From: Candidatus Anstonella stagnisolia
GTDB taxonomy: Archaea; Micrarchaeota; Micrarchaeia; Anstonellales; Anstonellaceae
Direction of reading: 5' to 3'
DNA: 64,000 nucleotides
Assembly: GCA_902384585.1 (NCBI GenBank)
Contig: CABMCJ010000004.1
Span: forward strand, 448,086-512,085
Under the pieces are notes generated by a model that worked only from the letters and a program-made list of their open reading frames with translations, was not told where the DNA came from and did no database searches. Both the position numbers and the translations under genes were made by a program. Below are positions 9,720 through 62,836 of this stretch, one piece after another. Numbering within the stretch: the stretch's first letter is position 1; the number at the start of each line of letters is the position of its first letter.

Positions 9720-11315
9720 TTATGGGTGCGGAGAGCCTATTGAGTAGATGTCGTATTTGAGGGACTTTTTCTTTTGGAGTTCATTTGTGAGCTGGGAGAG
9801 GATGCTGGACTTTATTGAGGAATATTTTTCCTTTGGAAGCGGTGCGTTCCCTATTGCGTTTCGCAAATTCTTTGAGTTGAAGCAGAACATGGAATCTGCT
9901 GTGCTCTCTACGTTGTGGCAAAAGAGGCTGTCTGAGCAATCCCTGCAGGAATCCATTTCAAGGCAGCGGTGGAGCTTGAGGGAATAGTAGGAATTGATGC
10001 AAAACTCGCTGTCAAACATCATTGCAGAGCCGAAAATGTGCTCGGAAGTGCGCGGCCAGAAAGAATATGCAATGAACTTGGAGAGGATATTGGGGTAAGA
10101 GCGGTAGCAGTTTGCGGATGAGGCGGTTGTGGGGCACTCTATTGTGTTTGTGTTTGTGCCCTGCTCGTATTCTGGGGGGCAGAAGGCGATATTTCCTAAG
10201 AATTCGTGCGCATTTTGTAGTGTAAGGCGGCTTGCATCTGAGTCGCTTATGTGGAAATTCTCGCCTATTTTGAGGGACTCGTCAAATTTCACAAGGCGGT
10301 TGCGCGGAAGCTCGAAAAAGGAAGAGTAGTCGCCTATTATGATGGGCTTGGAACTTACTGCGGATTTTCCGTATGCTTTTTCCCGTGAGTTTCTCTCCAG
10401 CCATTTTTGATAGTCGTCAAGGTGCCCAAGGGGCTTTCCGAAAATTACTTTTGAGGTTTGGTCAAATGCGTTTTGGATTGGGGCGAGGTCTGTGTGTGGG
10501 GAGGGAGAGTCGAATTTGAGATGGGAAAATTCGCTTGTGTCTGTGCTGCATTTTGCGAGCAAATCTACAAGGGAATAGATGCGCTTTTGTTTTGTGAGTT
10601 CAGATGCCATTTGGGAGAGGAGCGCCTTTTTTATTGCAGCATATTTTTCTTGCGGGAGCGCTAAATTTCCAATTGTGAATCTCTTGTTCTTTATGTTGAA
10701 AGAGTACATGCAGTCTGAGCAGCTTGCGAGGTTGTAGGAGTAATAGCAATCGGAACAATTTTCGCTTCTCCAAAGTTCAAAGCTGCGCACATCCCTGTAT
10801 GTTTCGTAGCATTTGAGGCAGAATTTGGACTCGCCTATCCCATTGCAGCCAAAGCAGTCTTCGCATAAGCGCCCAAGAGTGGAGTGTGCAATGTATTTTG
10901 AGTCCCCAAGCTTTGCGCAGTTGAGCATGTAATAGCTGTCGTTTATGTTTGTGCTTTCGTACACGTATTGGGAATTCCCTAGGATAATGTTGCCTGTGTA
11001 AAAAATGCGCTCCTGCACTGCGGACACTATGGAATCAATGTCTTTTACGTCGTTTATGGACAGCGGTTGAAACTTTTTGTTGAAATCAACCTCGTCAAAG
11101 CTTATCCATTTGGAATTCTCGCGGAATTTTGCATCTACGTAAGAGACAGGTTTTCCACTTAGGCTTGAATTTCTTCGCATAACTTCTTCGTTGAAATTGC
11201 AAAGCCAGTTTTTGTATTCTTCGAGTGGACCAAGCTCCGCTCCGAAAAGGATTTTTGTTGCGCCTTTCCACCTTTTTTCAAGGGTTTGGTGGCAGGAAAG
11301 CTCTTGGGGGTCCAT
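9720..11315 (-). CDS. Cys-rich, internally duplicated repeat protein (paralog 1 of 3)
   Basis: Two halves, each with an LFG.xLGxLxxYxxWL-type module, SDCxYSFN-type strand repeats and a (K)N(K)RxxIGNxxLPxEKY motif; likely ATG at 11315 (ORF extends to 11372). Confidence 0.8.
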   Translation of the reverse strand: MDPQELSCHQTLEKRWKGATKILFGAELGPLEEYKNWLCNFNEEVMRRNSSLSGKPVSYVDAKFRENSKWISFDEVDFNKKFQPLSINDVKDIDSIVSAVQERIFYTGNIILGNSQYVYESTNINDSYYMLNCAKLGDSKYIAHSTLGRLCEDCFGCNGIGESKFCLKCYETYRDVRSFELWRSENCSDCYYSYNLASCSDCMYSFNIKNKRFTIGNLALPQEKYAAIKKALLSQMASELTKQKRIYSLVDLLAKCSTDTSEFSHLKFDSPSPHTDLAPIQNAFDQTSKVIFGKPLGHLDDYQKWLERNSREKAYGKSAVSSKPIIIGDYSSFFELPRNRLVKFDESLKIGENFHISDSDASRLTLQNAHEFLGNIAFCPPEYEQGTNTNTIECPTTASSANCYRSYPNILSKFIAYSFWPRTSEHIFGSAMMFDSEFCINSYYSLKLHRCLEMDSCRDCSDSLFCHNVESTADSMFCFNSKNLRNAIGNAPLPKEKYSSIKSSILSQLTNELQKKKSLKYDIYSIGSPHP

Positions 11316-39024: not shown

Positions 39025-40620
39025 TTAGTCACTGCAACCGGCTTCGAAAATGCTTAGCGGGACTTCTTTTTTCTTTTCAAGGTTTTCGTTTGCCCAATTG
39101 AGGAGCATTTCCTTTGTTTTTTTGAATTGCGCTTCCCCTACAACCGTGTTCCCCACTGCATAAGAGAGGTTCTTTGCATTGAAGCAAAACATTGAGTTGC
39201 GCACGTTCTCGCAGTTGTGCAGGTAATAGGAATCCGAGCAGGATTTTGAGCTGTCTGCCTCAAAGCAGCGGTTGAGGTTTTCACAGTAGTAGCAGTTTAT
39301 GCAATAGAAAGACTCGAATGCCATTGAGGAGCCGAAAATGCACTCCGCATTCCTTGGCCAGAAAGAGTACGCAGTATTTTTTGAGAAAGAGGTGCCTGGG
39401 GAGCGGTATGCGTTCAAGGATTCGTATTGGGTGGAGCACTCTATTGCGTTTTCGTTGTGCCCCACAAAATATTCAGGGGAGAGGTATGCTATTTTTGAAA
39501 TCCCTTCGGAAATATTCTGGAAGGAAAGCTTGCTTGCTTCTTTCTCATCAAGGTGCAGGTTCTTCCCGATGTGCTCTGCCTCAAGCAGGGTGACAAGCCT
39601 GCTGCGGGGGTAAAGAAGGTAGTTTGAATAGTCTGCCAAAAGCATGGGCTTTGAGCTTATGATGGACTTGCCAACTTCCATTTTGAGCACGTGCGCGCGC
39701 AGCCATTTTGAGTAAGTGTCTATTCCGGTGAGTTTTTTGCCAAAGAGAAGATTGGACGTGGTTTCAAAAACGGAATTTATTTTTGAGAGATTCGGCTTTT
39801 CGATTTTTTCAAGGGACTTGAGTTCTGCGAGCAGGGGGGAATAGGAATGCCCCTTGCACTCCCCTACTATTTGCGCAAGGGAGGGCAGAGAGTGCGCACT
39901 TGAAAGCTTGTGCGCAATTTCGGATACGAGCTTTTCCTTCAGTGGGAGGTATTTTTCGCGCGAAAGCTCCAAATTACCGATTGCGTTGCGCTTGTTTTGC
40001 ACGTTGAAGCAGAAGAGGCAGTCCGAGGAGTTCATCACGCCGTTTATGTAAAAGCAGTCTGCGCAGGACTGGGATTTCCAAGCCTCAAGGCAGCGCACGT
40101 TTTTGTAAGATTCGCAGCATTTCACAAGGAATTTGCTTTCGCCGATTGCATCAGAGCCGAAAAGGAACTCGCTTTGCTTTGCGCGGCTGGAATTGCACAC
40201 GTATTTTGAGTCGCTTATGACGCCGGAGTCAAGCACGTAGTAGGAGTCGTTGCAGTTTGAGCTGCCCGCTATGAAATTCGAATTGCCCAGTATTATGTTG
40301 CCCGTGTAATATGCGCGCTCCTGCACCGCAGAGAGCAGGGAATCAATGTCCTTTATTTCGTTTATTGAGATGGGCGGGAATTTCTTGAGCTTCCAAATCT
40401 CGTCCAGCGATGCGCGCTTTGAGCCTGCGCAATAATCTTCAATGGAATACGTGATTTCCTTTCCTGTGAGGGAAGAAGGGGCATGCGCAAGGGCAGGCGT
40501 GTTTAGGGAGAGCCATTTTTGGAAAGGTTTCAGCTCCCCAATCTCCTTGCCAAAAAGAACCCTGCACGTGGATTTCCAGCATTTGTCAAGCTGTGAGTAC
40601 ACGGAAAGTGCAGGTTCCAC
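39025..40620 (-). CDS. Cys-rich, internally duplicated repeat protein (paralog 2 of 3)
   Basis: WKSTCRVLFGKEIGELKPFQKWL, NSSDCLFCFNVQNKRNAIGNLELSREKY, and second half LLFGKKLTGIDTYSKWL, NSMFCFNAKNLSYAVGN. Confidence 0.8.
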   Translation of the reverse strand: MEPALSVYSQLDKCWKSTCRVLFGKEIGELKPFQKWLSLNTPALAHAPSSLTGKEITYSIEDYCAGSKRASLDEIWKLKKFPPISINEIKDIDSLLSAVQERAYYTGNIILGNSNFIAGSSNCNDSYYVLDSGVISDSKYVCNSSRAKQSEFLFGSDAIGESKFLVKCCESYKNVRCLEAWKSQSCADCFYINGVMNSSDCLFCFNVQNKRNAIGNLELSREKYLPLKEKLVSEIAHKLSSAHSLPSLAQIVGECKGHSYSPLLAELKSLEKIEKPNLSKINSVFETTSNLLFGKKLTGIDTYSKWLRAHVLKMEVGKSIISSKPMLLADYSNYLLYPRSRLVTLLEAEHIGKNLHLDEKEASKLSFQNISEGISKIAYLSPEYFVGHNENAIECSTQYESLNAYRSPGTSFSKNTAYSFWPRNAECIFGSSMAFESFYCINCYYCENLNRCFEADSSKSCSDSYYLHNCENVRNSMFCFNAKNLSYAVGNTVVGEAQFKKTKEMLLNWANENLEKKKEVPLSIFEAGCSD

Positions 40621-51491: not shown

Positions 51492-51568
51492 TCAGACCGT
51501 CCGCTAGGGGGACAACACTTGGTCAGACGGTCAAAAGAGAGGTCGTTTCCTAGGAAATGAGGGGTGCT
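51492..51568 (+). repeat. 77-bp dispersed repeat, copy A
   Basis: tcagaccgtccgctagggggacaacacttggtcagacggtcaaaagagaggtcgtttcctaggaaatgaggggtgct; 2 mismatches to copy D by eye; contains GACCGTC/GACGGTC inverted repeat and TTTCCTAGGAAA palindrome. Confidence 0.95.
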
Positions 51569-51609
51569 GGCTTGCTCTTTTTGTCAGATGCAGTTTTATT
51601 AGTGGCTGG

Positions 51610-52989
51610 ATGAACGATACCTATTTAAACACTAAAATACACAATAATGGCATGCAAACTGTCCCTATACAGAGAATAGCCGCATCTTCCCTAACGGCAG
51701 TGAGGGATACCGCAAAGAGGGCAAGATTTTTCTCAAGGGCATTCGACGCAGAAGTTCCTGAAAGAATAGAGCTGAACATTGCTAGAGAGTATCGGTCTTT
51801 TCTGAAGCAACAGAACGAGCCCTTGAGCCATCTTGAAGGTGGAACCAGAAAAGCCATAACTTCCAAGCTTAAGGAGCGGCTTAGGGAATGCGCCAGATTT
51901 GAGGAGCAAGAATCGCAAAGACAACTATCTTACATAAGACAATCTTACGAGGAATCCCGTCTCCTTTCCAAAATAGTGAAAATAGCGGCACCTGCGTTTG
52001 CCGTTTACGCTGTTTTTACTGCAAGCAGTCCACTATTTGCCTTCATAGGAGTGGGGCTTGGAATCGGGATAGGGGCGTATGCCATTTCAAAGATTTGGAA
52101 GAATTATGTAACAAACAGAAATGAAAAACTTGCTTGTGTTTCCTTATCTTCTGAACAGTATAAAGCCAGAAGGTTTGAAATCTTTGGGCTTGCGGATGAA
52201 AAGATAAAAACTCGCTCTGAACACCAAAAAGAGGTTCAAAGATTAGATGATGCGGTTGAATTCGCCCTTACGTCATCAAAGCGGGAGGAAATTTTTGCCA
52301 GCATGCGCTGGCATGAACTTGAAGGATTAACTACCCAAGAAAGGCAGGCAAGGTTAAGCTTCATCATTTCTCAAGTAAAGGAGCAGATTCTGGCTCTTGT
52401 TCGCAAGTCAGTAAGTGCAGGAGCGGAAAGAGGAGGTTATGTTGTTTCTGGCGATGGCGGTTCTTCCGGTTTCATTGAAGCTAGAAATCTTATCCAGTCT
52501 GTTTTGCCATCTCCCGCTGATTTTTCTGACGCCTTGTCCGGACTTGTGAGGGATGGAAAAATTGACGATGTTGCAAGGTGTTTAACAAACCTCACTTTTG
52601 GCGCCGCTAACGAAACTGAAATTGCCACTCATATAAAACGACTGGTAGATGAAAAAACGGGCATATTGGAAAATGCGCTTGCGGAATTTTGGAAGCAGAT
52701 GCTTGCCCCTGCTGCAGCTTTTATTTATGCTGGCTCGCTGTTACCATTGCTGCAAGCAAAAGAACAGTCTGAAGCTTCTGGAAGCACGGATATAAGGCAA
52801 CTAAGGCTGCACACCCACCCAATCGCCCCTGACTCGGAAGAACAGGCACTGCTTCATATGGAAGGCGACATAACACACGCAAAAAGCTTCGGACCCCATC
52901 TAATGGCATGCCCCGTGAATGACGGGTTCCGACTATATTACATACACTCTGAAGGGATTGAAAAAATAGGTGACTTTCCCGCAAATTAA
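51610..52989 (+). CDS. Hypothetical protein with a central hydrophobic hairpin
   Basis: 459-aa ORF; IVKIAAPAFAVYAVFTASSPLFAFIGVGLGIGIGAYAI. Confidence 0.65.
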   Translation: MNDTYLNTKIHNNGMQTVPIQRIAASSLTAVRDTAKRARFFSRAFDAEVPERIELNIAREYRSFLKQQNEPLSHLEGGTRKAITSKLKERLRECARFEEQESQRQLSYIRQSYEESRLLSKIVKIAAPAFAVYAVFTASSPLFAFIGVGLGIGIGAYAISKIWKNYVTNRNEKLACVSLSSEQYKARRFEIFGLADEKIKTRSEHQKEVQRLDDAVEFALTSSKREEIFASMRWHELEGLTTQERQARLSFIISQVKEQILALVRKSVSAGAERGGYVVSGDGGSSGFIEARNLIQSVLPSPADFSDALSGLVRDGKIDDVARCLTNLTFGAANETEIATHIKRLVDEKTGILENALAEFWKQMLAPAAAFIYAGSLLPLLQAKEQSEASGSTDIRQLRLHTHPIAPDSEEQALLHMEGDITHAKSFGPHLMACPVNDGFRLYYIHSEGIEKIGDFPAN

Positions 52990-53058
52990 AGTATAGGTAC
53001 TTTCGTCGCAATCCTAAATTGGGTTAGGCAATACCCTAACTTCTCGTCCGTCTAACCA

Positions 53059-53087
53059 AGTAATGTGTATCAGACCGTCCGCTAGGG
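53059..53087 (+). repeat. 77-bp repeat, partial copy B
   Basis: agtaatgtgtatcagaccgtccgctaggg, 29 bp identical to the start of copy D with its upstream flank. Confidence 0.85.
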
Positions 53088-53425
53088 CTGAATTCGTCTG
53101 CCTGAGCTACGAGGTAAAATTGGCAATTAAATTGTTTTCAAAAGAACAGATTGGCAATAAAAGGACTAGGTGTTTTGGGGCTTTTTCTGCGGCTTGTTTC
53201 CGCGCAAATTCTGCGAGGAAACCTAGGAAATTCTTTTGACAGGCGTGGAGTGATGACAGATGCGCACTCTAATGAGAATTCGTTAATCGGGGAGATATAT
53301 CCTATTTAAATTTTACCGTTCATAAAAAGGTAATATAAGTAAATTTGTGGTGAATCTGGCACTGGTCTGACCGATTAGGCAACTGCCAGATAAGCTTCGA
53401 TATTACGTATTTGAGATTGCAAAAG

Positions 53426-55087
53426 ATGCGGGGGAAGGAAATGAGTGGGCTAAAAATCTTAAGAGGGTCAGCCGGCTTTGATGATTTCGCAAAAATTGTC
53501 AGATTGACTCCAGTGGAAAAAACAACGCGGGCTGCTCTGCTGCAGCGATCTTTCATGCCATTCCAGGTCCCAGAGAGTTATGCCCGAACTATAGCCTCAC
53601 TCCCGGAACCAAGCCGAACTCAGATGCTCAATATTGTCTTGCCACCGGAAGGAGAAAGGTTCTTCACCGGAAGATTTGACCCTTATGGGAATAAATTATG
53701 CCGACAGGAAGACCACGCGTTCCTACAACACAAGTATGAAAATACTCTGCTATTTCACGTCGATGATTTTTGCATCGGTAATTGCCAGTTTTGTTTCAAA
53801 GTGAATGAAATACGAACGGAGATCACCTCTAATCTGGATTTAAACCGGAAAATGCGGATTACGCTTGAGTATCTGACAACCAATCCGGGTATCAATAATG
53901 TGTTGGCTACTGGCGGGGACCCTGTGGCATTTCGGAACACCCGGGATTTGATAAAGCTCATTGATCCGTTAATATCCCATCCAAATATACGAGTCGTCAG
54001 ACTAGCAACAAAGGGCTTGGCTTACGCTCCAGAACGGTTCGAGGACGGAGAACTGCTGCAATATCTCAAAGAAGTCAATCGCAGGCCTGGAAAACAGATT
54101 ACCGTGATTGCCCAAATGAATCATCCGGCTGAGTTTACTGAATCAGCAAAAAGTGCCATACGCGCACTACAAGAAGCAGGGGTTCAAATACGGGGGCAGC
54201 CTGCGATTGTTAAGGGAGTAAACGACTCGGTAGAAACTCTGATTGAGCTTCAGAGGGCTTTCGTTGACAACCAAATCGTTTCTTATTATTTGACGGTTTT
54301 CATGCCGGTAAAGGGAGTTGAACAGTACGGATTGCCCTTGGATTGCATCTTTAGAAATGTCGCAGAATCGAAAAGGCACTTGAGTGGGTTGGAAAAGAAG
54401 GGGATTTTGCTAGCATCACATGATTTTGGGAAGCTGGAAATCTGCGGATTCTATCCGTCCCCTGAGCGACCTGAAAAGATTATCCTCAAATGGCATCAGA
54501 TTGAGATGGAACCGTACTTACCGAAGAGCCTTAAAGATAGGGTGCCGACAAGGCCAGAGGATTTGATGATACTTGATTATCGTAAGGGTGAGATGTACTG
54601 CATAGACCATGTGTTCAAAGCAAACAAGCTGCCATATTTTGACTCGGCCGGAAACTTGGTCGAGCCGGAACCGGAAGGGCATATTTCGGGGAATACGCAA
54701 AATATGCAGCCGGAGAGAACGATAAGACAGTATCTGAATGCACTGGAGAGCGGGAGTTACCGCACCATGATTCAGCTGTTCTCATCGGACGCAATTGTTC
54801 ATTCGCCATTGTATGGCGATGTAAACGCAAACGAATACTATTCTGGTCTGTTCAATGACACCACAAGTTCCAAAATCAGCTTTCTCAATATTTTTACTAG
54901 CCAAAATCCATCAAGGGCAGCTGGGCATTTCCGTTACGACTGGACCCTAAAGAATGGGGGCAAAATCTCTTTCCAGTGCGTAGATGTATTTCAGTTTGAT
55001 GAAACTGGTAAAATTAAGGACTTGACAATTATTTATGATACTGCGCCTATCCGGTCTTCTTTCCAGGAAATGAAACAACGCGATTGA
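53426..55087 (+). CDS. KamA-like radical SAM protein with C-terminal SnoaL/NTF2-like domain
   Basis: NTLLFHVDDFCIGNCQFCF (CxxxCxxC), NNVLATGGDPVAF; C-terminus TIRQYLNALESGSYRTMIQLFSSDAIVHSPLYGDVNANEYYSGLF...DVFQFDETGKI. Confidence 0.82.
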   Translation: MRGKEMSGLKILRGSAGFDDFAKIVRLTPVEKTTRAALLQRSFMPFQVPESYARTIASLPEPSRTQMLNIVLPPEGERFFTGRFDPYGNKLCRQEDHAFLQHKYENTLLFHVDDFCIGNCQFCFKVNEIRTEITSNLDLNRKMRITLEYLTTNPGINNVLATGGDPVAFRNTRDLIKLIDPLISHPNIRVVRLATKGLAYAPERFEDGELLQYLKEVNRRPGKQITVIAQMNHPAEFTESAKSAIRALQEAGVQIRGQPAIVKGVNDSVETLIELQRAFVDNQIVSYYLTVFMPVKGVEQYGLPLDCIFRNVAESKRHLSGLEKKGILLASHDFGKLEICGFYPSPERPEKIILKWHQIEMEPYLPKSLKDRVPTRPEDLMILDYRKGEMYCIDHVFKANKLPYFDSAGNLVEPEPEGHISGNTQNMQPERTIRQYLNALESGSYRTMIQLFSSDAIVHSPLYGDVNANEYYSGLFNDTTSSKISFLNIFTSQNPSRAAGHFRYDWTLKNGGKISFQCVDVFQFDETGKIKDLTIIYDTAPIRSSFQEMKQRD

Positions 55088-55114
55088 TGCACTTGCTAAG
55101 CATGGCACAATAAT

Positions 55115-55190
55115 GCCACGCGGAAACATCCGAAAACTTCGTTTTCGTGTTTCCAAAATGCCCGCGCATTTTGTAAATGCGCTGTCTCTA
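55115..55190. repeat. Nested hairpins upstream of repeat copy C
   Basis: GGAAACA-tc-CGAAAAC-ttc-GTTTTCG-TGTTTCC and GCGCATTT-tgt-AAATGCGC. Confidence 0.8.
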
Positions 55191-55224
55191 CCTTTTTCAT
55201 GTCACTCTGAGGTAGTAATTCACA

Positions 55225-55301
55225 TCAGACCGTCCGCTAGGGGGGCAACACTTGGTCAGACGGTCAAAACACAGGTCGTTTCCTAGGAAATGAGTGGTAT
55301 G
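55225..55301 (+). repeat. 77-bp dispersed repeat, copy C
   Basis: Same length as A and D with about 5 mismatches to D; abuts the stop codon of the 55303-56853 gene. Confidence 0.95.
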
Positions 55302-55302
55302 C

Positions 55303-56853
55303 CTAGTGCCGCAAATCAAATATGCTGAACCCAAGGGATTTTTTCCTTGCAATCTCCCCTTCAATCTGCGCAAGAAGGGCGTCTTTAATCAAGGAATATT
55401 TGCCTCGCTCCAGTTGCGTATTGCCTATGCTGTTTCTAGCACCTTTGAGGTTGAAGCAAAACATGCAGTCTGTGAGGGATTCTGAATTGTGGCAAAAGTA
55501 AGAATCCGAGCACTTGTTGCACGAGTCTAATTCAAGGCACCTGTTGAGATAGAGTGAATTGTAGCATTTCATAGCAAACTGCGATTCCAGTATCCGGTGG
55601 CAGCCATAGACGTATTTTGAATTGAGCGCCATGGAGCAGACGCCAACGTTCTCGCAGTTGACCCCGTCAAAACCATTGTATGAGTTCACTGCGTTAAAGG
55701 CATGGGGGAATCGGATAAGGTTGGAGTTTTGGCCGCCCATAAGCTCAATGGTGAAAAACGCCAGCGGACTTGCAGCCTCAAGCAAGCCATTCAAATTCCC
55801 GCGAATCTCGGCATGTTTCTTTCCCGCTTCAAACGATTCGTAGGACGAAACCAGCCTGGATTTTGGAAAATCCTGCATCAACGGGATGTTTTTTGGGAGA
55901 AATGTAATGGCGCCAAACGGGCTTTTGACTTCCTGCAAGGAAACAGTATGCATCGCAAGCCAGCGTTCGTAATCATTGATGTTTGAAGGAGTTGATTTCA
56001 ACAATATCCTGTGCGTTGCTGCAAAGCCTTTTTCGATGGCATCCATGCTTATGCCTGCCGCAGGAAGTCGCGCAGCAATTCCGGTCTGCGTTCCCATAGG
56101 GGGCGCATTGAAAAGCTCGGAGATGGATGGGAGCCTCTTCTTTCTTTCAAGCTCTTCTGCCACTTCCTCAAGCAGCTTTGCCTTCAATTTCCGATAATCC
56201 TCCGGAGGAAGCGGGGTGTTGGCTATGCACCGGCTTTTATTTTGCTGCCCGAAGCAGAACAGCATCTCGTGGCATCCGATGATGTTGTTGCAGAAATAGC
56301 AGTCGCTGCAATAGTCCGTTACTGAACATTCAAAGCCGCGCTTATGCCCGAAAGTTGCAACGCTTTTAACCAGGAATTCGGCTTGACCAGACGCCCCAGA
56401 GCCAAAAACATACTGGCTGTTCTTGCGTATCATGAATGAGGAGTCAACGTATCTGGATTCCTCTATGTTTGTTGAATTCCTTACGTAATGCGAATCCATC
56501 ACTATGTCAGATTGCTCTACAAACGTGCTGTTCCCAAGATATCTGTTGCCCGTGTATTCGCATTTTTCCCTTATTGCATTTATTATTGAGTCTATGTCCT
56601 TCAGCTGGTTTATTCCCAAACCGTAATCTTTGTTTCCCTGCGATTCGTCCGCGCGCACGAAAGCCGCATCCTTTCCATACGCATCCATCGCTATTAGAAC
56701 ATCCTTTCCTGATACGCAGGATTTCCTAAGCGCCCGCTCAGGCAGCGACAGCGCCATCCATTTTTCATATTCCTTCAAATCGCCTATCTCTTTGCCGAAC
56801 AGAATCTTGCATGTTTTTTTCCATGCCCCATCTAGTTTTTCGTCAAGTTCCAC
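55303..56853 (-). CDS. Cys-rich, internally duplicated repeat protein (paralog 3 of 3)
   Basis: LDGAWKKTCKILFGKEIGDLKEYEKWM, CHEMLFCFGQQNKSRCIANTPLPPEDY, LTDCMFCFNLKGARNSIGNTQLERGKY; GTG start. Confidence 0.8.
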   Translation of the reverse strand: MELDEKLDGAWKKTCKILFGKEIGDLKEYEKWMALSLPERALRKSCVSGKDVLIAMDAYGKDAAFVRADESQGNKDYGLGINQLKDIDSIINAIREKCEYTGNRYLGNSTFVEQSDIVMDSHYVRNSTNIEESRYVDSSFMIRKNSQYVFGSGASGQAEFLVKSVATFGHKRGFECSVTDYCSDCYFCNNIIGCHEMLFCFGQQNKSRCIANTPLPPEDYRKLKAKLLEEVAEELERKKRLPSISELFNAPPMGTQTGIAARLPAAGISMDAIEKGFAATHRILLKSTPSNINDYERWLAMHTVSLQEVKSPFGAITFLPKNIPLMQDFPKSRLVSSYESFEAGKKHAEIRGNLNGLLEAASPLAFFTIELMGGQNSNLIRFPHAFNAVNSYNGFDGVNCENVGVCSMALNSKYVYGCHRILESQFAMKCYNSLYLNRCLELDSCNKCSDSYFCHNSESLTDCMFCFNLKGARNSIGNTQLERGKYSLIKDALLAQIEGEIARKKSLGFSIFDLRH

Positions 56854-56904
56854 GGAATTGCCTTCTTGATATTCCCAGAAAGCTTATTTATAGATTGCGA
56901 ATGA

Positions 56905-56925
56905 CGACAGACGTCCAGTCTGTCG
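56905..56925. repeat. Perfect hairpin upstream of repeat copy D
   Basis: CGACAGAC-gtcca-GTCTGTCG. Confidence 0.85.
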
Positions 56926-56959
56926 CCATCCTTACGTGAGTCTGTCGCAGTAATGTGTA

Positions 56960-57036
56960 TCAGACCGTCCGCTAGGGGGGCAACACTTGGTCAGACGGTC
57001 AAAAGACAGGTCGTTTCCTAGGAAATGAGGGGTGCT
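56960..57036 (+). repeat. 77-bp dispersed repeat, copy D
   Basis: tcagaccgtccgctaggggggcaacacttggtcagacggtcaaaagacaggtcgtttcctaggaaatgaggggtgct; runs into the stop codon of the 57035-58489 gene. Confidence 0.95.
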
Positions 57037-58489
57037 AAGGTGATAAAGGTCGCATTGGGCGCTTTTTGAAGATGCCTACTTTTGGTCCTAAGTGCCCGAC
57101 TACAGTATTCGGATATTTGAGCAGAGTAATAAATTTCCATATATCAAATCCTGCATCAGAAAAGTTTACTCCCAATGCTAATACAAACAGATAATCTATG
57201 GAAGGCATAATTGTGGCAAGCAAAATTGCTAGAATTGATATCAAAATCACAGGGGATATTGTTATTAGTGCGCTCTGGTTTCTCGGGTAAATGCCGGTAT
57301 CTTCTACGCCAAATGGCGGAAACGATTTTAAAAGGCGAAATCTTGGTTTACCACCAAAAACACAAAACATTACGTAATGCGTTGCTTCGTGTATCGGGTA
57401 GATTAACAAACCAAATAGTAGAAGTGATGCGGACGGACTAAAGGGCAGGCTCAATATTTTGCTTAGAATTGTTGGGCAGACAAAAAAAGAGATAATGAGG
57501 AATACAGATACTGGGCTAAGATACCATGCAATCTGATGCATCCAAGATAATTCTTTTGTAGCGTCTATCCCACGAATAAAATCATGTGGGTCTCGGATTC
57601 TTTCAAACCATCCTGCTGAACTGTCTATCGTTTCAATTTTTTCTTTATATGGTAAAAGTTTTTCTTTGAGATATTTGTCATTGCTGTCTTTTTTCATTAC
57701 GCTACTTCCTATTATTATAATTTTATCGCTACTTCTGACTGCGTTCATAAATACGTCCCAGATGGATTTATACGGTTCTTGAGAAACTTGCTGTTCTTTA
57801 GTGGTGCCAGGATAAACTATTGCGTTTGAAAATTCAGATTGGGAAGTAAAACGAGGATAGGCTTCTATCTCTAGATTCGGTGGTCTTGGAAAGCCAATTA
57901 AACCAGGCTTGTGCCAACCAAAAGAGCCATGCAGTTTTAGTAATTCTGGAGAGCCCGGATTAATTGAAAGGGTTTCCATACCCATGATTCTTGTTGCAGG
58001 CAAACCATAATTTATGCTGCTATACTGTTGCAAGATTGAGCGGTCCAATAGTATATCATAGTTCAAAGACGCCATCACATCTCCTTTCTTCCAAACATGC
58101 TGCAAGAAAAAATTGTGTCGCCTTGGCTCTATAATTTCTGATTTTTTCAAAAGTCCATATAGACCGACAAGTATTGCATCGCGTTCGTGATTGTTAATTG
58201 GAACTACGAGACATTTTTTTGCCTGTGTTGCGCAATCGTATATTTCCTCAAAATTATTCGGGTTGGAAAAATCGTTTTTATTAGCTGAGATAAAGTCGTG
58301 AAGGAAATCTAGACTTGGTTCATAATTATGCAGTATTGCGCCGGGGTTTTTTAGTTCCTCTAGTCTTTCAATGGATGTTATGTCGGACGTTTTTAGAAGT
58401 AAGATTCTTTGTAGCACTTGCGAACCTAATGGAAGCTCATGGCACTCGGCATAGCTTGCACCACTGCCAAATATGTAAAGTGTTGTCAA
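57035..58489 (-). CDS. SIR2-like domain fused to a membrane zincin (DUF3267-like)
   Basis: N-terminus LYIFGSGASYAECHELPLGSQVLQRIL, ASLNYDILLDRSI, LLKLHGSFGW; C-terminus LIYPIHEATHYVMFCVFGGKPRF (HExxH in a hydrophobic region) with YPRNQSALITISPVILISILAIL and NFSDAGFDIWKFITLL. Confidence 0.82.
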   Translation of the reverse strand: MTTLYIFGSGASYAECHELPLGSQVLQRILLLKTSDITSIERLEELKNPGAILHNYEPSLDFLHDFISANKNDFSNPNNFEEIYDCATQAKKCLVVPINNHERDAILVGLYGLLKKSEIIEPRRHNFFLQHVWKKGDVMASLNYDILLDRSILQQYSSINYGLPATRIMGMETLSINPGSPELLKLHGSFGWHKPGLIGFPRPPNLEIEAYPRFTSQSEFSNAIVYPGTTKEQQVSQEPYKSIWDVFMNAVRSSDKIIIIGSSVMKKDSNDKYLKEKLLPYKEKIETIDSSAGWFERIRDPHDFIRGIDATKELSWMHQIAWYLSPVSVFLIISFFVCPTILSKILSLPFSPSASLLLFGLLIYPIHEATHYVMFCVFGGKPRFRLLKSFPPFGVEDTGIYPRNQSALITISPVILISILAILLATIMPSIDYLFVLALGVNFSDAGFDIWKFITLLKYPNTVVGHLGPKVGIFKKRPMRPLSP

Positions 58490-58509
58490 GATATCACTGC
58501 GACCAGGAT

Positions 58510-59811
58510 TTAATTATCATAAGAACCGTTTTTACGTTTTAGTATGAACCAGACGCACACAATTAAGATTATAGCAACTAGCCATAGCACGATGTCAAGT
58601 ATTATTCCGAGTATTCCCCATTGTTTCCAATCATTGTATTTTATCATTGCGTCAGAATAATCTCGGTTAGAACTCAGATAGAGCCCACTCTTGAATTCGT
58701 TTTCGGCTTGAAAGTATGTGCCCACGGATTGGAAAAAGAGGGGTAATTTATGAACTCTGAATAAAACGGTTCCGAGTGTCCCTAGCGAGTTATAATCTGA
58801 AAATGCTGATGTTCCGCGCTGGCGTGTTTCCTCAGCAGTTTGTTTTATTGGCATGATAAACGACAGATAAGTTGAAGCCTGAGTTTCGCCTGATTGAGTG
58901 CCATAAGAAATTGATGAAGAAAGAGCATCCAATGGCTGCGAATATTTAGGCTCTGAAAATGTTAGTGGGCATCTGTTTGAATCGGATAAACCTGAAGTAA
59001 CGGCGTTCCAAGTCATTCCGAGCGAATCTGTATCTTTAATATTTTTGAAATCTGATATTAAACGGATAAGCGCGGTGCCGGAGCCATTATAAAAAGTGCC
59101 CTGTTGCATTTCAGATAAAAGACGCGTTCCGACTGCCGAATAGTCATAAATTCTGCCTCCAAGATTAGACAGTGAGCAGGAATAAGTATCAATTACCTGA
59201 TATGCTTCACCTATAGGTACACCGCCTTTTAGTTCATTGACCGCAGAGAGAAAGACCTTGCCAGATTTTACCATAGTAACCTCATAACCTGCTGGCGCCA
59301 TGGCGCGCACAACATTCAAAGTGGCTTTATCGTTCTCTGCGGCTAGTTCAACTGCATGATTATCAAGTATGGAATTAATTGCTGTTGTAACGCCACATGC
59401 TTCGTGAGCGCCAACTGATTGGGCATTGCAATAACAGGCATCTTTGAAGATAACTGGATTGACATAGTTAAGGCTTTGATATATCTTGGCGGAACGGATA
59501 GCTTTTGTGGCTTCTTCCGCGTCCACTACTAAGCTGCAATCAGAATCCCTAATGGGCAAAGTTTGGCTCCCTACACTAACGGCTCTATAGGATATTTCAT
59601 TATATCTAACGTCAGTACTGGTGCCTTGAGAAGTATTGAAATATTCTTTGGTAAATTTTGAAACGTCGCACCACTTGGAGGGTGAATCCGGATGCGGAGA
59701 GGGTATGTCGCTGCAAATCTGCTGACCGCGAATTTGAGATAAAACTATGAATACTATTAACGCAAGGAGAGCTATGCCTCCGATAATATTATTGGTGCTC
59801 TGCCCCTTCAT
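58510..59811 (-). CDS. Double-anchored membrane protein with a large Cys-containing central domain
   Basis: N-terminal TM (IIGGIALLALIVFIVLS) and C-terminal TM (WGILGIILDIVLWLVAIILIVCVWFILKRK); about 20 bp upstream of the SIR2-zincin gene on the same strand. Confidence 0.7.
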   Translation of the reverse strand: MKGQSTNNIIGGIALLALIVFIVLSQIRGQQICSDIPSPHPDSPSKWCDVSKFTKEYFNTSQGTSTDVRYNEISYRAVSVGSQTLPIRDSDCSLVVDAEEATKAIRSAKIYQSLNYVNPVIFKDACYCNAQSVGAHEACGVTTAINSILDNHAVELAAENDKATLNVVRAMAPAGYEVTMVKSGKVFLSAVNELKGGVPIGEAYQVIDTYSCSLSNLGGRIYDYSAVGTRLLSEMQQGTFYNGSGTALIRLISDFKNIKDTDSLGMTWNAVTSGLSDSNRCPLTFSEPKYSQPLDALSSSISYGTQSGETQASTYLSFIMPIKQTAEETRQRGTSAFSDYNSLGTLGTVLFRVHKLPLFFQSVGTYFQAENEFKSGLYLSSNRDYSDAMIKYNDWKQWGILGIILDIVLWLVAIILIVCVWFILKRKNGSYDN

Positions 59812-59880
59812 AATCCCACTAAGTTGAGATTTTATCAGAAGAAGAATAAAACCTTTTGTTATTGTGGGGAAACTGGAGAA

Positions 59881-59913
59881 CACCCCTCATTTCCGCAGGA
59901 TATAGACACTTTC
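59881..59913 (-). repeat. Inverted, divergent end of the dispersed repeat, copy E
   Basis: cacccctcatttccgcaggatatagacactttc; 31/33 identical to copy F. Confidence 0.85.
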
Positions 59914-59966
59914 CTAAGAAGCTGCCTCAAATCATGAAGACAGACGTATATAACGTGAATTTTGCA

Positions 59967-61373
59967 CTATTTTATCCTAAACAGCTCTTCCTGCCGTTTG
60001 GTAAGATTATACTCCGTGTCAATGTCAGATATCTTCTCCGTGAACTTTGCTTTGGCTTTTGAGAGTAGCAAATACGCATCATCAAATTCTCCAAGAGCAG
60101 CGTGTATTTCTGCTGCAAGAAGATAAGCAGGGTATATTTCGTCGCTAATCCTTAAGGCACGCAAGGCATAAGTTTTGCTTTCGCGCACGAATCCGGCTTC
60201 GTATAGGTGTCTTGCCGCTTCATATGAGTCCATGAAAGAATCCGCGCCTTTCTCCCCTGCTGAAACATAGAAATTGAACGCTTCATTGCGCAGTTCGTAT
60301 GCTTCGCCGATTTCTCCCATTGATAGCAAAACGCTTGGTTCGTTTGGATCCAGCTCATAAGCTTTTGTAATCATTTTTACAGCCTCAGGCACCTTGAGCC
60401 ATGATTTTACATCACGTGCAGCATTTTTGCCGATGCCTTGAGGTATTCCATCTTTCCTTCGTTCATAGACGAGTTTATCAAAATCCGACCTTCCTACTGT
60501 ATCCTTTTCTGAAAATATGTTATTTGCAAGCTCATTGCGCATGCTTGTTTCTATTTCCGTCATGGATTGTTCAACCTGCTCTTTCGTGCATTTGAATGTC
60601 CACGCCTTGCCGTTTGGAAATTCAAATTTTGTAAATATGTTGGCGCCATTGCTTGTTACAATGCACGTTACAATTTCCATCAGCTTGTCTTTTGATATGT
60701 CTTCGGTCCGATGGGCTTCTACCCACAATTTCACTGGTGTTTCCCCATTATCCAAGTAATCCCTGTATGGCGCAGCGAGGGTTCCGATAAATGGAACTGC
60801 CACGATTATTTTGCTTTCCGTAAGTGCCGCGGCAAGTCCGCCTATTTGGTCGTTTTTGATTTTAGGGCTTAGGCATAACATTGGCTCTGCAAGCAGAGTG
60901 TCGCCATTTTCAAGAAGTTGGGTTCCTGTTACGAACGCGCCTATCTTTCCCCTGCCTTGGTCGCTAAGCACCAATAAGCCCCTTGCTCCCGGAATTGCAA
61001 AATACCACATGGTTGCCTCAAGGAACTCTCCTGCCAGATGCCGTATTTCTTTAGGTCCATCGGTTGCCCCCAATTTAGCTTTAACCGTATCCGGCAGATT
61101 ATACGTGAATATGCCATCCATGCCAAAAGGTTGGATATGCAGCATATACTTGTCCGGATAAGACGTTGTCCATATTTTTGAAATTTTAAGTGAATTAAAA
61201 AAAGAATCCGCTTTAGCGCCTTGTTCTTGACGGAGCTGGATTATCATTGAGTCATTCGGTGCAATCCATTCCCCTATCTCCCTCACTCCTTGTGCGTGCG
61301 CTCTAAAAAATGGGCTTATTGCAAGTCCCAATGCTAATGCAGCAGGTGCAAGTTTTTTTAACTGTAGATTCAT
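59967..61373 (-). CDS. Secreted/membrane-anchored TPR-like protein
   Basis: Signal-like N-terminus (LAPAALALGLAISPFFRAHAQG); C-terminal repeats AVKMITKAYELDPNEPSVLLSMGEIGEAYELRNEAFNFYVSAGEKG. Confidence 0.7.
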   Translation of the reverse strand: MNLQLKKLAPAALALGLAISPFFRAHAQGVREIGEWIAPNDSMIIQLRQEQGAKADSFFNSLKISKIWTTSYPDKYMLHIQPFGMDGIFTYNLPDTVKAKLGATDGPKEIRHLAGEFLEATMWYFAIPGARGLLVLSDQGRGKIGAFVTGTQLLENGDTLLAEPMLCLSPKIKNDQIGGLAAALTESKIIVAVPFIGTLAAPYRDYLDNGETPVKLWVEAHRTEDISKDKLMEIVTCIVTSNGANIFTKFEFPNGKAWTFKCTKEQVEQSMTEIETSMRNELANNIFSEKDTVGRSDFDKLVYERRKDGIPQGIGKNAARDVKSWLKVPEAVKMITKAYELDPNEPSVLLSMGEIGEAYELRNEAFNFYVSAGEKGADSFMDSYEAARHLYEAGFVRESKTYALRALRISDEIYPAYLLAAEIHAALGEFDDAYLLLSKAKAKFTEKISDIDTEYNLTKRQEELFRIK

Positions 61374-61592
61374 GAGACCACAAATTTTTCTAAATGTTAC
61401 GCTGGAGTATCTATGAGGCAGGTAATTTGTTTTGCTCTAAATGTTAATATTGGCAACAAATAATTAAACTGTTTCGGTGTAGATGGCGAGGGCGTGGTTA
61501 CTCAAAATATTGACACCCCGAAGAAATTCAAAACTTCTTCTACTGATGCCAAGATGGGCACGGAAACTTTTACGGTCAACAATAAGCCTTAA

Positions 61593-61625
61593 CGCCCCTC
61601 ATTTCCGCAGAATATAGACACTTTC
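61593..61625 (-). repeat. Inverted, divergent end of the dispersed repeat, copy F
   Basis: cgcccctcatttccgcagaatatagacactttc; with flank ccttaacgcccctcatttcc it matches the reverse complement of the copy D end (ccttagcacccctcatttcc). Confidence 0.85.
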
Positions 61626-61677: not shown

Positions 61678-62532
61678 ATGGAAACGAAATATTCTGTTGT
61701 AATTGGGGATGCGCGCAACATGGCGGAGCTGCCGGATGAAAGCGTGCAGCTTGTCGTAACAAGCCCGCCCTACTTTAATGTAAAAGACTACGGGGACGAT
61801 GACGCGAACATTGGCGCAATAGACGACTATGTTTCCTATCTTGGCGCGGTTGAGGCTGTTTTTAGGGAATGCTACCGCGTGCTGGAGGATGGAAGGTACT
61901 GCTGCGTGAATATTTCTGACGTAATTTCAGGAGGCAGGAAATATCCGATTCCCTTCCACTATGTTTTCATGCTTGAGCGCTCCGGCTTCATTTACAGGGA
62001 CAATATAATTTGGAAAAAGCCGGACGGAATAGGGCAGAATGCAAGGAGCGGGGCTGCAAAGCGCTTCGGGGTGCTAATGCAAAACCCCTATCCAATGTAT
62101 TATTACCCAAACAACATTTACGAGCACATCCTCATTTTCAGAAAAGGCGTTTTCAATTTCAGGAAGCCGACCATGCAGCAGAAAGTAGGGGCAATGCTGG
62201 ACATAGAGCAGGCAAAGAAGCGCTGGAATACCGATATTTGGACAATGGCTGCGGCAACCGTGAACCAGTACACTAAAGTGCATCCGGCAATGTTCCCTGA
62301 GGAATTGCCTGAGGGCTTAATCCGGCTTTACACTTTCAAGGGCGAGACCGTTCTGGACCCTTTTCTTGGCAGCGGCACAACGCTAAAGGTAGCTCGGGCG
62401 CTATCGCGCGGCTGCATAGGCTACGAGATAAACCCGGACTATCTGCCACTGATTAGGAAAAAGGCGGGCTTTGACTTGGAAGGAAAACTGGATGTAAAAT
62501 ACCAAGGAGGTGGTAGGAATGAAAGGGGCTAG
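61678..62532 (+). CDS. DNA methyltransferase (N4-cytosine/N6-adenine, beta-type motif order)
   Basis: LVVTSPPYFNVKDYGD (motif IV) and ETVLDPFLGSGTTLKVA (motif I) near the C-terminus. Confidence 0.92.
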   Translation: METKYSVVIGDARNMAELPDESVQLVVTSPPYFNVKDYGDDDANIGAIDDYVSYLGAVEAVFRECYRVLEDGRYCCVNISDVISGGRKYPIPFHYVFMLERSGFIYRDNIIWKKPDGIGQNARSGAAKRFGVLMQNPYPMYYYPNNIYEHILIFRKGVFNFRKPTMQQKVGAMLDIEQAKKRWNTDIWTMAAATVNQYTKVHPAMFPEELPEGLIRLYTFKGETVLDPFLGSGTTLKVARALSRGCIGYEINPDYLPLIRKKAGFDLEGKLDVKYQGGGRNERG

Positions 62533-62836
62533 GGCAAAACAAATCCTAGCCCCGCTCATGCTTTTTGCATTGGCGGGGTTAGCGAGTGCCGAGCTTGTTA
62601 TTCCGGCAGACCAGCCTGTTTGCAGGCTGTACGGGATAATACAGGTGCTTGGCACGGTGGCGGGAGTCCTGATAGCCGCCTATGCAGGGTTCATCCTTGC
62701 GAGCAGCAACGACATAAACGAGCGCAATACGGCAAAGCAGCTTTTGGGAGGGGTAGTCCTCGGGCTGATAATAATCTGGATTGCGCCGCTGCTTGTGAAG
62801 AGCCTTGTTGGGGTTGCTGACGTGTGTGGGTGGTAG
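62519..62836 (+). CDS. VirB2/TrbC-like small membrane protein
   Basis: Signal-like N-terminus then VCRLYGIIQVLGTVAGVLIAAYAGFILASS...AKQLLGGVVLGLIIIWIAPLLVKSLV. Confidence 0.65.
   Translation: MKGARAKQILAPLMLFALAGLASAELVIPADQPVCRLYGIIQVLGTVAGVLIAAYAGFILASSNDINERNTAKQLLGGVVLGLIIIWIAPLLVKSLVGVADVCGW

What the first reader, a model, noticed from the sequence alone, without database searches (positions are those of the whole stretch)
51492..61625. Island with a cassette-like organisation set by a 77-bp dispersed repeat
Copies A (51492), C (55225) and D (56960) are all exactly 77 bp with few mismatches; B (53059) is a 29-bp piece; E (59881) and F (61593) are related ends in inverted orientation. 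Each sits in an intergenic boundary, giving A-[ORF]-B-[radical SAM]-C-[paralog 3]-D-[SIR2-zincin pair]-E-[TPR]-F. Each copy has a GACCGTC/GACGGTC inverted repeat and A, C and D have a perfect TTTCCTAGGAAA palindrome. This suggests a recombination or mobilisation signal that moves single genes.
Basis: partly seen in the sequence, partly recalled or inferred. Interest (0 to 1): 0.82.

Follow-up and report, generated by a model that had tools for sequence, protein, structure and literature searches.

The report
Archaeal gene-cassette array anchored on guide-RNA gene
In this archaeon and its relatives, single genes (many resembling antiviral or toxin genes) appear to be inserted one after another at the end of a small guide-RNA gene by a dedicated recombinase, much as bacterial integrons collect gene cassettes but with different parts.

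Summary
The repeat is real. A, C and D are 77-bp direct repeats. B is only the first 18 bp. E and F share only the last ~13 bp, on the other strand. In the 1.33-Mb genome the 17-bp left motif occurs only here.
The 77-mer has two parts. (1) TCAGACCGTCCG is the reverse complement of the 3' end (guide + D box) of a box C/D sRNA-like gene, found about once per genome across the archaeal order. It lies in the same orientation 26-31 kb away, beside the genome's only PF00589 tyrosine recombinase. (2) TTTCCTAGGAAATGAGGGG resembles an archaeal origin recognition box; it precedes 7/7 element-type cdc6 genes and 0/30 others.
The sRNA-core explanation predicted lineage-specific cores at cassette ends, and these were found: 9 direct and 0 inverted extra copies 3' of the sRNA in 341 kb. 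A G058/G068 comparison gives an empty/filled site: a 1182-bp cassette with one TIR gene inserted exactly at the core. The recombinase clade is monophyletic; 10 of 15 members sit at a near-complete sRNA.
Verdict: an integron-like cassette array built by a non-IntI recombinase at a guide-RNA gene. Excision and integration chemistry are inferred. E-F are origin-box repeats, not cassettes.

The parts
51492..51568 (+). Site A: core TCAGACCGTCCG (51492-51503) + CTAGG + ORB-like TTTCCTAGGAAATGAGGGGTG; no recombinase-type arm on its left: inferred distal junction of the island with the chromosome
51504..53081 (.). Cassette A-B (1578 bp between core starts), one gene
51610..52989 (+). ORF1, 459 aa, no Pfam match
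53044..53087 (+). Site B: arm GTCTAAC + spacer + core 53070-53081 + CTAGGG, no full ORB
53082..53370 (+). Leader after B, homologous to the region upstream of the G005 integrase (L091); ends in a TATA-like box before the rSAM gene
53411..55087 (+). Cassette B-C gene: radical SAM + SnoaL-like protein, 558 aa
55225..55301 (+). Site C (core + CTAGG + ORB-like)
55303..56853 (-). Cassette C-D gene ('paralog 3'), 516 aa; paralogs at window 9738-11288 and 39043-40593 (~33% identity)
56960..57036 (+). Site D (core + CTAGG + ORB-like): inferred left end of the ~26-kb integrase-bearing element that runs to the sRNA at C4:531103-531163
57035..58489 (-). SIR2-like + DUF3267 zincin fusion protein, 484 aa
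58510..59883 (-). ORF457, no confident family
59879..59913 (-). E: ORB-like GGAAATGAGGGGTG with 19-bp arm shared with F
59967..61373 (-). TPR protein, 468 aa, between E and F
61591..61625 (-). F: ORB-like repeat, 94% to E
61678..62532 (+). N6/N4 DNA methyltransferase, first gene of the conjugation/replication/restriction part of the element (continues past the window: VirB4-like, Cdc6, R-M, integrase at C4:529893-531044)
62510..62836 (+). TrbC/VirB2-type pilin-like protein

Best explanation
The island is a cassette array accreted at the 3' end of a conserved box C/D-type sRNA gene. A clade of XerA-like tyrosine recombinases (C-terminal zinc ribbon) recombines a short core, the last 12-13 nt of the sRNA (guide 2 half + D box; TCAGACCGTCCG on the other strand), with the same core on circular cassettes. 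Each insertion leaves the sRNA 3' end intact and pushes earlier cassettes away, giving cassettes of one or two genes in tandem between direct core repeats. In this genome B, C and D are internal junctions, A is the distal junction with the chromosome, and the sRNA-integrase junction (C4:531103) is the proximal one; D-to-sRNA is a 26-kb conjugative-type element with Cdc6, restriction-modification and the recombinase. In this family many cassette ends also carry an ORB-like site for the element's own Cdc6, so excised circles might replicate. SHOWN: cores, direct orientation, lineage-specific match to the sRNA, an exact empty/filled site, the recombinase clade and its linkage, the ORB-cdc6 association. 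INFERRED: catalysis, circular intermediates, replication, guide-RNA activity, defence role of cargo.
For: Order-wide sRNA: its C box + guide 1 pattern matches in 59/84 genomes, reversed-pattern controls near zero; C, D', C' and D boxes; best Rfam hits are archaeal C/D RNAs sR2 and sR1, E 0.005 and 0.0009, below gathering. Recombinase clade monophyletic, 98/97; 10 of 15 members have a near-complete sRNA directly upstream, including three of the four members found only afterwards in other families (f12-f14); the others sit at cassette sites or, once, at a truncated sRNA. None of the other tyrosine recombinases checked has sites within 3 kb. The core varies by lineage (GTCCG, GCACG, TCAGTCC-type) and cassette-end copies follow the sRNA of their own genome. 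9 direct / 0 inverted extra cores in 341 kb 3' of the sRNA. Empty/filled: the sequence following the sRNA core in G068 follows the distal core in G058, 1182 bp away; the insert holds one TIR gene and lies proximal. Most core-bounded intervals listed hold a single main gene. A, alone of the four sites, lacks the left arm. ORB motif: upstream of 7/7 element-type cdc6, 0/30 others, p~1e-7.
Against: No excision circle, integration assay or strain-level mobility was seen; all genomes are one-per-species, mostly draft assemblies. The insert-polarity argument rests on one clean species pair. G058, which has the best filled site, has no recombinase of this clade in its assembly. The chromosomal flank of A could not be compared with an empty site in a close relative; the only same-genus genome has the recombinase but no L-motif array. 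ORB-like motifs are full in 9 of 26 f1 sites (half dyad in 11 more), so they are not essential, and were not evident in f7 cassette ends. C/D sRNA identity is by sequence features only.
Confidence: 0.8

Rival explanations
1. Ordinary tandem accretion of integrative elements at an RNA gene, as known for tRNA and tmRNA genes: A, B and C are decayed ends of formerly complete integrase-bearing elements, not compact cassettes.
For: The D-to-sRNA part is a complete integrase- and conjugation-bearing element; archaeal elements integrated in tandem at one locus are known (PMC8371274).
Against: Small units (520-2150 bp) of one or two genes without integrase recur in f1, f7 and f11. A clean filled site holds one gene from core to core with no integrase remnant. 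f7 cassette ends share a motif across unrelated cargo.
Confidence: 0.13
2. True integron (IntI + attC) as reported in some archaea.
For: Cassette array, proximal insertion, tyrosine recombinase; GTCTAAC near site B looks like an R'' box.
Against: Integron-integrase model TIGR02249 scores 48 against a cut-off of 265; no constant GTTRRRY/RYYYAAC pair; folding no better than shuffles; the core is an sRNA fragment.
Confidence: 0.02
3. The repeats are only Cdc6/ORB replication or operator sites; gene boundaries are incidental.
For: The 3' half is ORB-like and precedes 7/7 element-type cdc6 genes.
Against: Does not explain the L half, its identity to the sRNA end, the direct orientation, or core-bounded inserts without an evident ORB in f7.
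Confidence: 0.04
4. Conserved ncRNA or terminator in syntenic positions.
For: The core is shared with an sRNA gene.
Against: Array copies lack C and D'/C' boxes; content between copies is not syntenic; no Rfam hit in the window; no folding signal.
Confidence: 0.01

Closest known systems
Integrons, incl. archaeal integrons (PMC9668308)
   Same: Tandem gene cassettes between short recombination sites, apparent insertion at a fixed anchor, tyrosine recombinase, defence/toxin-like cargo
   Different: Recombinase is XerA-like with a zinc ribbon and not IntI; the anchor is a C/D-type sRNA 3' end, not attI; sites are lineage-specific sRNA cores without attC boxes or folding signal; cassettes occur in both gene orientations
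dif modules of Acinetobacter plasmids (PMC6449649, PMC13141974)
   Same: Small gene modules bounded by tyrosine-recombinase sites, no IntI
   Different: Those use host XerC/D and pdif sites on plasmids; here direct core repeats lie at a chromosomal RNA gene with a dedicated recombinase clade
Genomic islands at tRNA/tmRNA genes and tandem accretion (Islander, PMC4383910; archaeal recombinase review, PMC8371274)
   Same: Tyrosine recombinase, insertion at the 3' end of an RNA gene that stays intact, direct repeats, tandem accretion
   Different: Target is a C/D-type guide RNA gene; many units are single-gene cassettes without a recombinase
Archaeal ORB elements (Ori-Finder 2 common motif, PMC4164010)
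   Same: Dyad + G-run next to cdc6: TTTCC[TA/GC]GGAAATGAGGGG vs TCCA[CG]T[TG]GAAA[TC][GA]AAGGGGT
   Different: Specific to element-type cdc6; also placed at cassette ends

Membership tests
Integron | IntI-type integrase | tested here: not met
   TIGR02249 48 bits vs cut-off 265; best model archaeal XerA NF040815 at 110.8 vs 220
Integron | attC sites with R'/R'' core and folding | tested here: not met
   Core is sRNA-derived and lineage-specific; DNA folding z -0.4 to -1.1
Integron | Array of cassettes without their own integrase | tested here: met
Integron | New cassettes inserted at the anchor-proximal end | tested here: inconclusive
   Met in the one clean pair, G058 vs G068
RNA-gene genomic island / tandem accretion | Tyrosine integrase next to the 3' end of an RNA gene, direct core repeat at the other end | tested here: met
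   Own genome sRNA C4:531103-531163 and sites A-D; nine further genomes have a near-complete sRNA upstream of the recombinase, but their distal ends were not mapped
Box C/D sRNA | C/D' and C'/D boxes with 12-nt guide spacers | tested here: met
   spacer lengths were partly fixed by the search pattern; Rfam sR1/sR2 best hits below gathering
Box C/D sRNA | Expressed and guides 2'-O-methylation | not testable with these tools
   No RNA data; complementarity of the guides to 16S rRNA (ACCGCCCGUC; GAUCACC) is from general knowledge
Archaeal ORB | Consensus dyad + G-run beside orc1/cdc6 | tested here: met
   7/7 vs 0/30, Fisher p 1e-7
dif module | Xer dif-like sites flanking plasmid modules | tested here: not met
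   Sites are direct repeats of an sRNA core on the chromosome

The most novel reading that the evidence does not exclude
A second, independently evolved integron-like gene-capture system in archaea: a dedicated recombinase stockpiles single defence-type genes at a guide-RNA gene, the cassette end must match the RNA's guide + D box so the RNA survives each insertion, and some cassettes carry an origin box that would let excised circles replicate with the element's Cdc6.
Probability: 0.5. Interest if true: 0.9.

Novelty: new variant of a known kind. Interest (0 to 1): 0.82.

Why it matters
Integrons are the textbook single-gene capture platform. This would be a parallel solution in small-genome archaea with a different recombinase, different sites and a guide-RNA gene as anchor. 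It gives a search recipe (sRNA 3' core + direct repeats) for finding candidate defence genes, and suggests that functional constraint on a guide RNA keeps host and cassette sites compatible. A box C/D sRNA gene as an integration target was not mentioned in the archaeal recombinase review searched (PMC8371274), and one paper search for it found nothing.

Tried and rejected
Reading the R half as the recombination core: it was first taken as a palindromic tyrosine-recombinase core, then rejected because it precedes only element-type cdc6 genes and fits the ORB consensus (vs 44, 61). attC-like or ncRNA folding: no signal. Transposon ends or IS: no transposase between the sites among the ORFs annotated. 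Exact-motif scan of genome contigs: most of the 31 hits are bacterial and look like chance; one archaeal contig (L053) looks real. Viral contigs: motif hits lack the downstream motif and look like chance, and no recombinase relative was found. MscL-side synteny as an empty-site test: no hit in the same-genus genome, only loose proximity in G003 and G012.

Full report
Observation. A (51492), C (55225) and D (56960) are near-identical 77-bp direct repeats in intergenic boundaries; B (53070) keeps only the first 18 bp; E (59879) and F (61591) share only the final ~13 bp, on the minus strand, plus a common 19-bp arm. The motif is far above chance in the window. In the 1.33-Mb genome TCAGACCGTCCGCTRGG occurs only at A-D. 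In the family, 11 of 20 genomes have matches at up to 2 mismatches.

The 77-mer is composite. Left part: core TCAGACCGTCCG followed by CTAGG; in many copies an inverted arm lies ~20 bp to the left (for example GTCTGAC...GCATCAGACC). Right part: TTTCC[TA/GC]GGAAATGAGG[GT]GTG. The right part, searched alone, lies 70-100 bp upstream of the start of cdc6 in the closest relatives of the element's Cdc6 (in this genome it overlaps the annotated start, which is probably called too early): 7 of 7, against none of 30 other cdc6 genes (p~1e-7). It fits the common archaeal ORB motif (PMC4164010). E and F are this ORB-like element only.

The left core comes from an RNA gene. Upstream of the genome's only PF00589 hit (C4:529893-531044) lies GTGATGA...CTGA-type box C/D sequence ending in GACGGACGGTCTGATG, whose reverse complement contains the core (sRNA C4:531103-531163). 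Its C box + guide-1 pattern occurs about once per genome in 59 of 84 genomes of the order, controls near zero. Best Rfam hits are archaeal C/D sRNAs sR2 and sR1, below gathering.

Recombinase clade. In the family the closest relatives of this recombinase are the ones found near L/R sites; none of the other tyrosine recombinases checked has such sites within 3 kb. A phylum-wide search found four more close members; three (families f12, f13, f14) sit at the same sRNA and the fourth at an L site. The clade is monophyletic (98/97). Of 15 members counted (14 in the tree plus the contig-end fragment in G001), 10 have a near-complete sRNA upstream (G000, G001, G006, G013, G016 second copy, G018:C51, G063, G085, G090, G095); G005, G016 first copy, G018:C67 and G292 have a cassette-type site and G019 has a truncated sRNA end. 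The protein is not IntI and carries a C-terminal zinc ribbon.

Prediction test. If the sRNA 3' end is the target, lineages with a different guide should have cassette ends with the matching different core. They do: family f7 (core TCAGACCGCACG) and genus g3 (TCAGTCCGTCCG) have extra, directly repeated copies. G061, with a variant core inside f7, has an exact matching copy, and f11 (G034) has one with a single mismatch. In 341 kb of DNA 3' of the sRNA there are 9 direct and 0 inverted extra cores at <=1 mismatch. Most f7 cassette ends share GAGCGCAATCC.TC.CAAAACCTTG before the core, whatever the cargo; a profile search finds more in G038, G062, G066 and G069.

Empty/filled site. G068: sRNA core + CATTTCAT... 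+ membrane/HTH gene pair. G058: sRNA core + a 1182-bp unit with one 355-aa TIR-domain gene + core + CATTTCAT... + the same gene pair. The insertion is exact at the core and lies between the anchor and the older unit. In this pair the direction of change (insertion in G058 rather than loss in G068) is inferred.

Cargo. Of the core-bounded intervals listed, most hold a single main gene: TIR, Fic (three), AAA/DUF4143, HTH, PEMT-like, OmdA-like and several without Pfam match; a ParE-like toxin (with a small partner and a 340-aa gene) and a DUF6036 nucleotidyltransferase + wHTH pair are multi-gene units. PADLOC gives TIR (PDC-S66, ThsB), Fic (PDC-S04), AAA (PDC-S01) and weak SIR2 matches. Genes lie in both orientations.

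The window. Reading the minus strand from the sRNA: the integrase-bearing element (wHTH-like gene, restriction-modification, Cdc6, VirB4-like, pilin) ends at D; gene3 is D-C, radical SAM C-B, ORF1 B-A. B, C and D have a left arm, A does not and is followed by a hairpin-like sequence before mscL, as expected for the distal junction. The leader after B is homologous to the region upstream of the G005 recombinase. D-to-sRNA is 26,058 bp, A-to-sRNA 31,526 bp.

ORBs at cassette ends. Of 26 f1 sites, 9 have a full ORB-like motif within 150 bp (background 2.7%) and 11 more a half dyad. Whether circles replicate is a hypothesis.

Limits. No catalysis, circles or strain variation were observed; most genomes are drafts; the clean insertion-order case is a single pair; G058 has no clade recombinase in its assembly. 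C/D sRNA function is inferred from boxes.

Noticed in passing
L275-L295 (f7 genomes), sRNA locus: In family f7 the D'-C' interval of the C/D-type sRNA carries a conserved ~70-130-nt insert (CCCTAAGCCAGYG...GTCAA...CAGGGGCAACCCGGCCACGG), unusual for an archaeal C/D sRNA.
   Followed up: no
sRNA, e.g. G000:C4:531103-531163: Guide 2 (GACGGACGGU / GACGUGCGGU) is complementary with one mismatch to the universal 16S ACCGCCCGUC (D+5 would be C1402), and guide 1 (GGUGAUC) to the 16S 3' end; from general knowledge, not tested here.
   Followed up: no
L381 (G064) sRNA: The sRNA 3' core is ACGAGCGGTCTGA while the displaced distal copy has the usual ACGTGCGGTCTGA, as if the cassette had donated a new guide end.
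   Followed up: partly
window 9738-11288, 39043-40593, 55303-56853: Three ~33%-identical paralogs of a ~516-aa protein without Pfam match; relatives occur near sites in other genomes.
   Followed up: partly
G013, G018, G016 and others (L164, L165, L169 ...): A second related group of tyrosine recombinases (about 44% identical to the query) is multiplied (several copies in G013) with no L/R sites nearby; targets unknown.
   Followed up: no
L090, L381, L378 cassettes: Fic-domain proteins recur as single-gene cassettes in two families with lineage-matched cores.
   Followed up: partly
L012:1644-1664 and G001, G006, G016, G018 equivalents: A small conserved gene that looks like a winged-helix DNA-binding protein follows the recombinase, with ORB-like dyads in between.
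   Followed up: no
window 59879-61625: TPR gene flanked by two 35-bp direct repeats (94% identical), each an ORB-like element with the same 19-bp arm; origin unexplained.
   Followed up: partly
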